Part shown: positions 17,997 to 20,448 of the stretch, piece after piece
Layout of the letters: every line of letters starts with the position of its first letter
Numbering within the stretch: the stretch's first letter is position 1
Source of the DNA: an uncultured Caryophanales bacterium
GTDB lineage: Bacteria > Bacillota_I > Bacilli_A > RFN20 > CAG-826
Length of the DNA stretch: 32,230 nucleotides
Assembly: GCA_947302535.1 (NCBI GenBank)
Contig: CAMYVX010000013.1
Span: 1-32,230 of the forward strand
Direction of reading: 5' to 3'
Notes under the pieces: model-generated
Told to the model about the DNA's origin: nothing
Databases searched by the model: none
The model's input: the letters and a program-made list of their open reading frames with translations, nothing else
Made by a program: the position numbers and the translations under genes

Positions 17997-18575
17997 ATGA
18001 TTATTCATAATCTCAAAAGACTAGTGCTTCTATCTTCTTTGCTTTTTTCGTCATTGAGCATTGTTTCTTGTGGCAGCTCTTCCTCTTCTTCTCCTAGAAG
18101 AGAACATCGCTTGTCGTGGCGGTTATATAAATACGTCCCTAAGAACAAATATATCACTGCAATAAAAGATGAATATGATTTTGCTTTTATGGTTAGTTGC
18201 AACTATGTTGATAACGGTGATTACTCATACACAATTGAGGGGGAAATAGAATTATTCAATTACACAACAGACATTGATACTCTGCATAGTCTTTTACTAG
18301 AAGAACATATCTTTGGTATCGGTAAAGCTTTGTATGGCAATCATTTTGTTTATGACTACGACAATCCTCTTATCTTTACTGAAACGGCAAATTTAGAAGA
18401 ATTAACCCTTAGTTTCTCTTTAAAATGGTACGATGTTCATTTTGAATTATTTTTGGATTACTACTATATATTCTTCTCTTTGATAGAATCGGAAGCAACT
18501 GAAAACTTTAATAATAAATTCTATTACTATTTCTCGATAAAAGACTATTCAGTTGATAAAGGAGAAGCATCATGA
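17997..18575 (+). CDS. Putative lipoprotein, cassette gene 1
   Basis: Not a family I recognise. Residues 1-24 form a lipoprotein signal peptide (basic HNLKR, hydrophobic core, lipobox IVSC) with Cys25 as the lipidated residue, followed by a poly-serine linker (CGSSSSSS). The mature part, about 168 residues, is rich in Tyr, Phe, Asp and Glu with alternating beta-like pattern and no enzyme motif. It resembles the third cassette gene in layout: Cys plus Ser run, a FxVS strand, then an NYxxDxDTL-type segment (FNYTTDIDTL here, MNYDNDNTL there). Distant paralogy is possible. Its TGA stop, the only TGA stop in the window, overlaps the protease ATG (ATGA), so the two are coupled. Confidence 0.75.
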   Translation: MIIHNLKRLVLLSSLLFSSLSIVSCGSSSSSSPRREHRLSWRLYKYVPKNKYITAIKDEYDFAFMVSCNYVDNGDYSYTIEGEIELFNYTTDIDTLHSLLLEEHIFGIGKALYGNHFVYDYDNPLIFTETANLEELTLSFSLKWYDVHFELFLDYYYIFFSLIESEATENFNNKFYYYFSIKDYSVDKGEAS

Positions 18576-19915
18576 AATTATTACTTTGCCTTAATGTCCT
18601 CTACATAGTTTCTTTGCTTAATAGTAGTCTATATTTAAACAAAAACATTATTTCTTCTTCTCTTGATAACAATAAAACAATCATCAAATCTAGAAAAGAG
18701 ATTGGAGAAGATGAAGATTATATAACTTTATTAAGAAATAATTATCAAAAATTAATTGATGCTTATAATGAAGCTTCGAAAGATAAATTATTAGCCACTG
18801 AACTTCTAGTTTGTCGTAAGATGAATAATGAAGATGACTTATATTATCTAGGTTTCGATAAAGGCTTTGCTATTGTCGATTCCAATAAAACAGTAGTGGA
18901 AGTTACAAATCGTGATTACACCTATAAAGATGATTTAAATGATTACGATGAAATCTTTTATAGAGGCAATACATTTTATTACAAAAAAGACGATGAACTC
19001 ATAGAGCTTATTGATGATAGAGTTTATACAATTAAAACATCAAGTGCAGAAGGTTCGCAAAGTAATGGCGTCAGTCATAACGGCCAAATTAGGCCTGGTG
19101 ACGGCACGATTTATGATTTAGATGATTATATTGATGATAGATATGCTGGATTTACAGTTACAAATGTTTTTTCATCTTGCCTCAACAATACAATGAATGT
19201 ATATCAGTTTGATACAAGCTTTTATCTCAATAATGCAGGCGGAAGCGAATGCAATTGCGTTTTAAACGCTACTTACTCTATGTTGCTTCACATGGGTATA
19301 AATGGATGGGCCCCTACATTTTATTATGGTGATACATATATTGACTGTTTAGATGACATTAGCGACGATCCACATTACCATGATCTCGTTGAAATTGGAA
19401 ACTGGTCCGTCAATTACCGTCAAAGAATCGGCACTGAATGGCACGGATATAACTGTTTGGAAAAAATTCCTGGTTTGTATAATCACATTAGAAACCGCGC
19501 ACTTGAATATTGTTACGATGAGGGCAGCGATTTCCAATTTTTAAGATCAATGGATTTGATTAGTTATGTCGATGGTTTCTATAATTATCAAATAACTACA
19601 GGTTTTTGTAGCGATACAGGAGTAGTGAAAAATCGAATAAATGATGAAATGTCTAGTTTTATCGGGGTATCCGGATCTGAAACATATGGCAATCATGCTA
19701 TGTGTGTAGTTGGCTATGAAACATATAATTTTGGGATTAGCGGCTTTTTTAATTTTTCTTTACCCAGAATCTTCTTTAGAGTTGATGATGGATTTTCTAA
19801 CAAAATAGATGAAGGTCAAATGTGGACAGGTCCTATATTTTTCGATCCTTATTATTCTGATTCATTTATTTTTGTTGTCGCTAGCGAAAACATTGTCGAT
19901 TTATCTCTTTGTTAG
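18572..19915 (+). CDS. Secreted papain-like (C39-like/C10-like) cysteine protease
   Basis: A 447-residue exported protein. Residues 1-20 look like a signal peptide. Residues ~50-155 resemble the propeptide of streptopain-like enzymes (YYLGFDKGFAIVDSNKTVVE). A papain-like catalytic core runs from ~200 to the end. The likely nucleophile is Cys229 in ECNCVLNATYSMLLHMG, the likely histidine is His375 in GNHAMCVVGYE, and Asp405/Asp406 in FRVDDGF stands where papain-like enzymes keep the third residue. The usual oxyanion Gln ahead of the Cys is not evident. The mature region has many cysteines. AAGGAG precedes the ATG, which overlaps the upstream lipoprotein stop. The substrate is unknown. The cysteine protease-fold call is moderate, and export is well supported. 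Confidence 0.7.
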   Translation: MKLLLCLNVLYIVSLLNSSLYLNKNIISSSLDNNKTIIKSRKEIGEDEDYITLLRNNYQKLIDAYNEASKDKLLATELLVCRKMNNEDDLYYLGFDKGFAIVDSNKTVVEVTNRDYTYKDDLNDYDEIFYRGNTFYYKKDDELIELIDDRVYTIKTSSAEGSQSNGVSHNGQIRPGDGTIYDLDDYIDDRYAGFTVTNVFSSCLNNTMNVYQFDTSFYLNNAGGSECNCVLNATYSMLLHMGINGWAPTFYYGDTYIDCLDDISDDPHYHDLVEIGNWSVNYRQRIGTEWHGYNCLEKIPGLYNHIRNRALEYCYDEGSDFQFLRSMDLISYVDGFYNYQITTGFCSDTGVVKNRINDEMSSFIGVSGSETYGNHAMCVVGYETYNFGISGFFNFSLPRIFFRVDDGFSNKIDEGQMWTGPIFFDPYYSDSFIFVVASENIVDLSLC

Positions 19916-20448
19916 GAGGAGTTAGCCATACGAAAACAAATTTTAATCTTTTTAAATCAATAGGCGTTTTATCCGTTTTATTAATTGCTGGATGTTACTC
20001 TAGTTCGTCTCCAGATAATTCTCTTCCCTTCTACCGTTATCATGGGTATATGGATAGGCCAGTTACCTTTGGATCCGAAGACAGCGAGTGTCATGGTGTT
20101 ACTTTTTTTGTCTCCTTCGAGATTATCAAAAATAATAATTCTTTCCTTGTTGATTATACTGTTCAATTCATGAATTATGATAATGATAATACACTGGTTG
20201 AATATTGTAAAAGGGAGCTGGGGAATAACTTTAATATTGTACTATTGCAAAGTAGTTTTTATCTAAGACATCTTGGATATTTTTCCTGTAGTTATTCAAA
20301 ACCTAATAATCTAGATGATATTTTATGTCTTCCTGAACAGCTGCTTTTCAAAGTTACGATCGAACAAGAAGAGCCTCCGAGTGAGGGCGGCATATTTTAT
20401 TTTAGATGGGGTGTTGGCGGTCATTCAGAGTTTTATATACACATTTAA
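19909..20448 (+). CDS. Putative lipoprotein, cassette gene 3, with an anomalous start
   Basis: Unknown family. The frame holds a textbook lipoprotein signal (basic KTNFNLFKS, core IGVLSVLL, lipobox LIAGC) followed by a serine run (CYSSSS) and ~150 beta-rich residues. The only conventional upstream start is TTG at 19909, inside the protease gene and without a Shine-Dalgarno sequence. A strong AGGAGG (19914-19919) lies downstream of that TTG and points to codon 19930, which reads ACG. Initiation at ACG would give the ideal signal peptide. Either ACG is used, the TTG is used by coupling, or the ATG was lost by mutation. The coordinates give the longest form. It looks distantly related to cassette gene 1. 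Confidence 0.65.
   Translation: MLGGVSHTKTNFNLFKSIGVLSVLLIAGCYSSSSPDNSLPFYRYHGYMDRPVTFGSEDSECHGVTFFVSFEIIKNNNSFLVDYTVQFMNYDNDNTLVEYCKRELGNNFNIVLLQSSFYLRHLGYFSCSYSKPNNLDDILCLPEQLLFKVTIEQEEPPSEGGIFYFRWGVGGHSEFYIHI

What the first reader, a model, noticed from the sequence alone, without database searches (positions are those of the whole stretch)
17997..20448. Lipoprotein / secreted cysteine protease / lipoprotein cassette
Three coupled genes (an ATGA overlap, then a Shine-Dalgarno sequence across the next stop) lie between ispG and rpmG. The middle one encodes an exported papain-like protease with a streptopain-like propeptide. It is flanked by two lipoproteins that share layout (lipobox, serine run, beta-rich 150-170 residues) and a possible common segment (NYxxDxDTL). 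Cysteine proteases in staphylococci and streptococci are often encoded with dedicated inhibitors or propeptide-like partners. Membrane-anchored partners on both sides would be a new arrangement, for example self-protection or a surface-tethered protease complex. Function is inferred from layout only.
Basis: partly seen in the sequence, partly recalled or inferred. Interest (0 to 1): 0.7.

Follow-up and report, generated by a model that had tools for sequence, protein, structure and literature searches.

The report
Secreted cysteine protease with lipoprotein partners
A gut bacterium makes an exported papain-like protease together with two small membrane-tethered proteins; related bacteria keep the same pairing, which suggests the tethered proteins hold the protease in check, and the protease also carries an unusual terminal cysteine that goes with a radical-SAM modifying enzyme.

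Summary
The three coupled genes are real: lipoprotein, exported papain-like protease, lipoprotein. Corrections: lipoprotein 2 has no ATG/GTG/TTG after its Shine-Dalgarno (ACG at 19930 fits); similarity between the lipoproteins is not significant; a streptopain-type propeptide is not shown. The protease matches no named family but belongs to a scattered family in gut Bacilli, a TGA=Trp genome and Christensenella, with conserved Cys/His/Asp. At 27 of 37 loci (12 genera) it is tightly followed by one to three small lipoproteins, against 4 of 245 control genes. The lipoproteins are unrecognisable between genera. Four homologues that lost Cys and His lack a lipoprotein; ten intact ones, mostly one genus, also lack it. 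Best reading (inferred): membrane-tethered inhibitors or immunity proteins, working like Bacteroides bfi1A-bfp1-bfi1B. Unexpected: the window protease ends in Cys, and that tail tracks a PapB-like radical SAM/SPASM gene: five family genomes have both, sixteen neither. At eight of eight readable strong radical SAM loci found independently of this protease, a nearby protein also ends in Cys. That may be a new effector-maturation system; its chemistry is unknown.

The parts
17997..18575 (+). lipoprotein 1 (192 aa), lipobox IVSC, serine run; putative membrane-tethered partner of the protease
   Evidence: ORF and sequence; no Pfam/NCBIfam family; no credible homologue in 220 family genomes
18558..18563 (+). 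Shine-Dalgarno-like AAGGAG upstream of the protease start
   Evidence: sequence
18572..18575 (+). ATGA stop/start overlap between lipoprotein 1 and protease
   Evidence: sequence
18572..19915 (+). exported papain-like (clan CA) cysteine protease, 447 aa: signal peptide, about 160-residue pro-region, catalytic domain
   Evidence: conserved catalytic motifs in relatives; AlphaFold catalytic domain; Foldseek top hits mostly papain-like though none below 1e-3
19256..19258 (+). catalytic Cys229 codon (motif SECNC, relatives SEGNC)
   Evidence: N-terminus of helix 229-243 in the model
19694..19696 (+). catalytic His375 codon (TYGNHAM)
19787..19789 (+). third catalytic residue candidate Asp406 (VDDG)
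   Evidence: conserved as D (E in one subgroup) in nearly all relatives
19889..19912 (+). C-terminal tail NIVDLSLC ending in Cys447; the terminal Cys tracks a radical SAM gene
19914..19919 (+). Shine-Dalgarno AGGAGG overlapping the protease stop codon
19930..20448 (+). lipoprotein 2 (172 aa from the apparent ACG start 19930-19932), lipobox IAGC, serine run
   Evidence: no credible homologue in 220 family genomes

Best explanation
One transcript makes an exported papain-like cysteine protease precursor and, in coupled translation, two lipoproteins that stay on the outer face of the cell membrane. Each lipoprotein most likely binds its cognate protease and blocks it near the producing cell (self-protection or immunity), so proteolysis happens only after the enzyme has left. 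Shown: the genes, their coupling, the export and lipobox signals, the catalytic residues, and the conserved protease-lipoprotein linkage. Inferred: one transcript, binding, inhibition and self-protection. The terminal Cys of the protease is a candidate site for modification by the radical SAM/SPASM enzyme encoded elsewhere in this genome (G000 contig 9, 1-459); that step is inferred from co-occurrence only.
For: Tight downstream lipoprotein (gaps mostly -35 to +30 nt, many stop/start overlaps) at 27 loci in 12 genera, against 4 of 245 control genes, including Christensenella with three tandem copies and a TGA=Trp genome with one and three copies. Homologues without catalytic Cys and His (genus g5, four genomes) have no lipoprotein. 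Lipoproteins outlast the protease: two related lipoproteins where protease B is absent (G132, L012), one intact beside an interrupted protease B (G064, L010). Lipoproteins diverge beyond recognition between genera while the protease stays alignable, as expected for co-evolving inhibitors. Two other effector families at related radical SAM loci (L209/L214 and L216) also carry one or three lipoproteins. Precedents for co-transcribed protease/inhibitor pairs: PMC2873492, PMC3462683.
Against: Ten loci with intact active sites lack a lipoprotein, mostly one Anaeroplasmataceae genus (L088-L095, L185), plus L066, L075 and L184. The lipoproteins match no inhibitor family and a related one could not be folded confidently (pLDDT 45). 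The g5 case is one lineage, so it may be a single event. No complex could be modelled.
Confidence: 0.55

Rival explanations
1. The lipoproteins are anchors or folding/activation partners: they tether the protease to the membrane or help its precursor fold, making a surface-bound enzyme complex.
For: Same operon-like order, membrane anchor and coupled translation would fit; the protease itself has no lipobox or wall-sorting signal.
Against: A pro-region is already present; several intact homologues lack any lipoprotein; lipoproteins persist after loss or interruption of the protease gene, which a helper would not; no similarity across genera.
Confidence: 0.2
2. The cassette is a toxin-immunity pair aimed at competing bacteria: the protease attacks other cells and the lipoproteins protect producer and kin. 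This overlaps with the best explanation and differs from it in the target.
For: Tandem and orphan lipoproteins, fast divergence, and a shared radical SAM/lipoprotein context with unrelated proteins, one of them with a DUF6973 domain. Papain-like domains are known toxins of polymorphic systems (PMC3482391).
Against: No delivery domain; nothing shows the target is bacterial rather than dietary or host protein; inhibitor and immunity readings make the same genomic predictions.
Confidence: 0.35
3. The lipoproteins are sensors or substrates cleaved by the protease, feeding an envelope-stress circuit.
For: ECF sigma factor genes plus an adjacent gene without a family match lie upstream of several homologues (L066, L077, L094) and near L210.
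Against: No sigma factor gene beside the window cassette; loci with sigma factors often lack the lipoprotein.
Confidence: 0.1
4. Unrelated neighbours: small lipoprotein genes happen to follow the protease.
For: The lipoproteins share no detectable homology between genera.
Against: 27 of 37 loci against 4 of 245 control genes, with overlapping stop/start codons.
Confidence: 0.04

Closest known systems
bfi1A-bfp1-bfi1B and btp/bti clusters of Bacteroides (C10 proteases with staphostatin-like inhibitors; PMC2873492, PMC3462683)
   Same: Exported papain-like protease with pro-region, small predicted-inhibitor genes directly up- and downstream, co-transcribed; some predicted inhibitors are lipoproteins; one cluster member (BtpZ) has lost its catalytic Cys
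   Different: Window protease is not recognised as C10; partners are larger (172-192 against 116-138 aa) and not staphostatin-like by sequence search; these are mostly Bacilli (one Christensenella); Cys tail linked to a radical SAM enzyme
SpeB/Spi (Streptococcus) and staphopain/staphostatin (Staphylococcus)
   Same: Secreted cysteine protease precursor co-encoded with a small dedicated inhibitor; prostaphopain B and the staphopain-staphostatin complex are among the Foldseek hits
   Different: Spi and staphostatins are thought to act in the cytoplasm (PMC3462683); here both partners carry lipoboxes; no sequence similarity found
Peptidase_C39_2 (PF13529)
   Same: 14 of 31 family members match it; four of the ten scanned individually score above the curated cut-off
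   Different: The window protein itself does not match; the family has a pro-region and lipoprotein partner
PapB-type radical SAM/SPASM ranthipeptide maturases (NF047865)
   Same: Best NCBIfam match of the tail-associated enzyme (157.5 bits)
   Different: Far below the 340-bit cut-off; associated with Cys-terminated whole proteins rather than short precursor peptides

Membership tests
Papain-like (clan CA) cysteine protease | Cys at the start of a central helix, followed by His and Asp/Asn on strands | tested here: met
   C229/H375/D406 aligned across relatives; helix 229-243 and strands at 373-389 and 396-405 in the model; Foldseek top hits mostly papain-like, best E 2.4e-3, so fold support is moderate
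Peptidase C10 (streptopain) | Match to PF01640 | tested here: not met
   no match for the window protein; 2 of 31 relatives weakly, best E 0.0016, 19.2 bits against a 26-bit cut-off
Peptidase_C39_2 | Match to PF13529 above cut-off | tested here: not met
   window protein no match; relatives L068, L073, L076 and L010 match above 24 bits
Streptopain-type propeptide | Sequence or fold match of the pro-region | tested here: inconclusive
   no family match; pro-region modelled at pLDDT below 50
Staphostatin / Spi / other protease inhibitor families | Sequence match of the lipoproteins | tested here: not met
   no Pfam, NCBIfam or credible PDB match
Staphostatin / Spi / other protease inhibitor families | Inhibition of the cognate protease | not testable with these tools
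   needs biochemistry or a complex prediction
Bacterial lipoproteins | Sec signal with lipobox [LVI][ASTVI][GAS]C | tested here: met
   IVSC and IAGC
bfi-bfp-bfi type cassette | Protease gene flanked by coupled small exported partner genes | tested here: met
   window layout; PMC2873492 for the reference
bfi-bfp-bfi type cassette | C10 protease with staphostatin-like partners | tested here: not met
   no C10 match; no staphostatin match
PapB radical SAM equivalog | NF047865 score at or above 340 bits | tested here: not met
   120-158 bits for three tail-associated enzymes

The most novel reading that the evidence does not exclude
A modular effector system of gut Bacilli and Christensenella: diverse exported proteins (papain-like proteases and several unnamed families) end in a terminal cysteine, often with a hydrophobic residue three before it, that a dedicated PapB-related radical SAM/SPASM enzyme modifies before export, with immunity-like lipoproteins or small membrane proteins encoded alongside. 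The window cassette is one member, with its enzyme elsewhere in the genome.
Probability: 0.4. Interest if true: 0.88.

Novelty: new variant of a known kind. Interest (0 to 1): 0.62.

Why it matters
It extends the protease-plus-tethered-inhibitor logic known from Bacteroides to poorly studied gut Bacilli, a TGA=Trp genome and Christensenella, with a protease family and partner proteins that the libraries do not name. The link between a terminal cysteine on whole exported proteins and a radical SAM enzyme would, if chemical, be a new kind of protein maturation or sorting, and it is testable by mass spectrometry.

Tried and rejected
Sequence-only search of PDB with the protease and with its profile: no relevant match. 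Collection scan with the window protease: no confirmed relative; profile-derived patterns were not conserved enough, so a DNA pattern was used instead. Homology of the two window lipoproteins: rejected as unproven. Homology of lipoproteins across genera: not detected; hits of the window lipoproteins in other genomes are short weak matches inside unrelated frames. Structure of a related lipoprotein: too poor to search with. Horizontal origin from composition: no anomaly. A Cys-Asp/Glu thioether of PapB type at the tail: acidic residues near the Cys are not consistently placed, so the chemistry is left open.

Full report
What is there. The three genes are real and coupled. Lipoprotein 1 (17997-18575) overlaps the protease start by ATGA; the protease (18572-19915) stops inside an AGGAGG that serves lipoprotein 2. 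After that Shine-Dalgarno there is no ATG, GTG or TTG in frame; the lipoprotein-like N-terminus begins at an ACG (19930). This may be a weak non-standard start, a recent mutation or an assembly error. The two lipoproteins share lipobox, serine run and size, but their sequence similarity is not significant (168 of 2000 shuffles as good).

The protease. It matches no Pfam or NCBIfam family and no PDB sequence. A search of its own taxonomic family found weak relatives, and a profile found 22 of 224 family genomes and further genomes of the class. Motifs SE(G/S)NC, YGNHA...GY and DG are conserved, and window and relatives find each other by plain BLAST too (up to 71.6 bits). Fourteen of 31 members match Peptidase_C39_2, two weakly C10. 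The AlphaFold model has Cys229 at the start of a helix, with moderate confidence in the catalytic domain; Foldseek's best hits are mostly papain-like enzymes (IdeC, a C39-like peptidase, calpain, prostaphopain B, staphopain), none below E 1e-3. So it is a divergent papain-like enzyme, not a demonstrated streptopain.

The partner. At 27 loci in 12 genera the protease gene is tightly followed by a small lipoprotein gene, often with stop/start overlap; the control rate is 4 of 245 genes. Christensenella has three tandem copies and a TGA=Trp genome has one and three. Between genera these lipoproteins are not recognisably related, and the window pair has no credible homologue in 220 family genomes. 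Loci are not phylogenetically independent, and several protease frames are truncated or interrupted, so the odds ratio overstates the number of events.

Why inhibitor or immunity. Four homologues in one genus have lost both Cys and His and have no lipoprotein. In G132 the second protease is absent while two related lipoproteins remain, and in G064 the second protease frame is interrupted while its lipoprotein is intact. These fit a protective role better than a helper role. Against it, ten loci with intact active sites have no lipoprotein, most in one Anaeroplasmataceae genus (the genus name rests on L118). Mechanism is therefore inferred, at about 0.55.

Known parallels. Bacteroides fragilis bfi1A-bfp1-bfi1B has co-transcribed predicted inhibitors on both sides of a C10 protease; Bfi1B and Bfi4 are predicted lipoproteins and Bfi1A Sec-exported (PMC2873492). 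B. thetaiotaomicron btp/bti is similar (PMC3462683). The window differs in protease family, partner size and sequence, and organism group.

An unexpected link. In several relatives the protease sits next to a radical SAM/SPASM gene whose best NCBIfam match is PapB, below cut-off. The window genome encodes one too, 52% identical to the g17 enzyme over the 149 residues aligned, cut by a contig end. Within the family, five genomes have a protease ending in Cys and this enzyme, and sixteen have a protease without terminal Cys and no enzyme found (Fisher 4.9e-5, not corrected for relatedness; the enzyme search covered 220 of 224 genomes at E 1e-40). The second protease of G199 lacks the tail although that genome has the enzyme. 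Christensenella has both, and lies apart from the window/g17 group in the tree, so the combination probably arose or moved at least twice.

Check of the link at other loci. Radical SAM genes of this group found without reference to the protease were read with their neighbours. At eight of eight readable loci scoring above 300 bits (L203, L205-L210, L214) an adjacent or near protein ends in Cys; a truncated one (L216) also does; one contig is cut (L204) and one gene ends with its contig (L217); one weaker hit (L215, 262 bits) has none. None of these proteins is matched by the window protease's profile, though L207 weakly matches Peptidase_C39_2. Most begin with a signal-like stretch, but the L214 frame as listed does not, and L216 starts with a hydrophobic segment. 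In the sample of 506 genes, 18 end in Cys, of which 14 are such proteins and the four others lack a hydrophobic L, W or F three before the end. L214 and L216 lack that residue too, so the terminal Cys, not the full motif, is the safe claim. Outside the family, 14 class genomes whose protease homologues lack the tail have no such enzyme; G533 has two, one of them beside another Cys-terminated protein.

Limits. No complex or chemistry was tested, the lipoprotein model failed, and the window genome's radical SAM gene is separate from the cassette and truncated. Whether it acts on this protease is open.

Noticed in passing
G000 contig 9, 1-459 (L190); L010, L011, L066, L136, L203-L210, L214, L216: PapB-like radical SAM/SPASM enzyme beside proteins that end in Cys; the window genome has one at a contig end, and the window protease also ends in Cys.
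   Followed up: yes
window 19928-19935: Apparent ACG start codon of lipoprotein 2, with a good Shine-Dalgarno ten bases upstream; no ATG/GTG/TTG fits.
   Followed up: partly
L066 1911-2210 (-) and 8503-8793 (+): Two small proteins with Nif11-like leader segments containing SGG, near a radical SAM gene; below family cut-offs.
   Followed up: partly
L013, L070, L071, L072: Exported homologues that lost catalytic Cys and His, preceded by two helix-turn-helix regulator genes, without a lipoprotein: possible pseudoenzymes.
   Followed up: partly
L066, L077, L094, L210: ECF-type sigma factor gene (sigma-like in L210, not scanned) followed by a gene without family match, upstream of or near protease homologues.
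   Followed up: partly
L182, L183 (G673): Protease homologue readable only with TGA as tryptophan; one and three downstream lipoproteins.
   Followed up: partly
L010 7896-9013: Second protease of G064 is split over several frames while its lipoprotein frame is intact.
   Followed up: partly
L209 6221-7321 and L214 2872-3993: Two Cys-terminated proteins sharing a DLIHMFA...GDLQT segment, each with a lipoprotein and a radical SAM gene; no Pfam match.
   Followed up: partly
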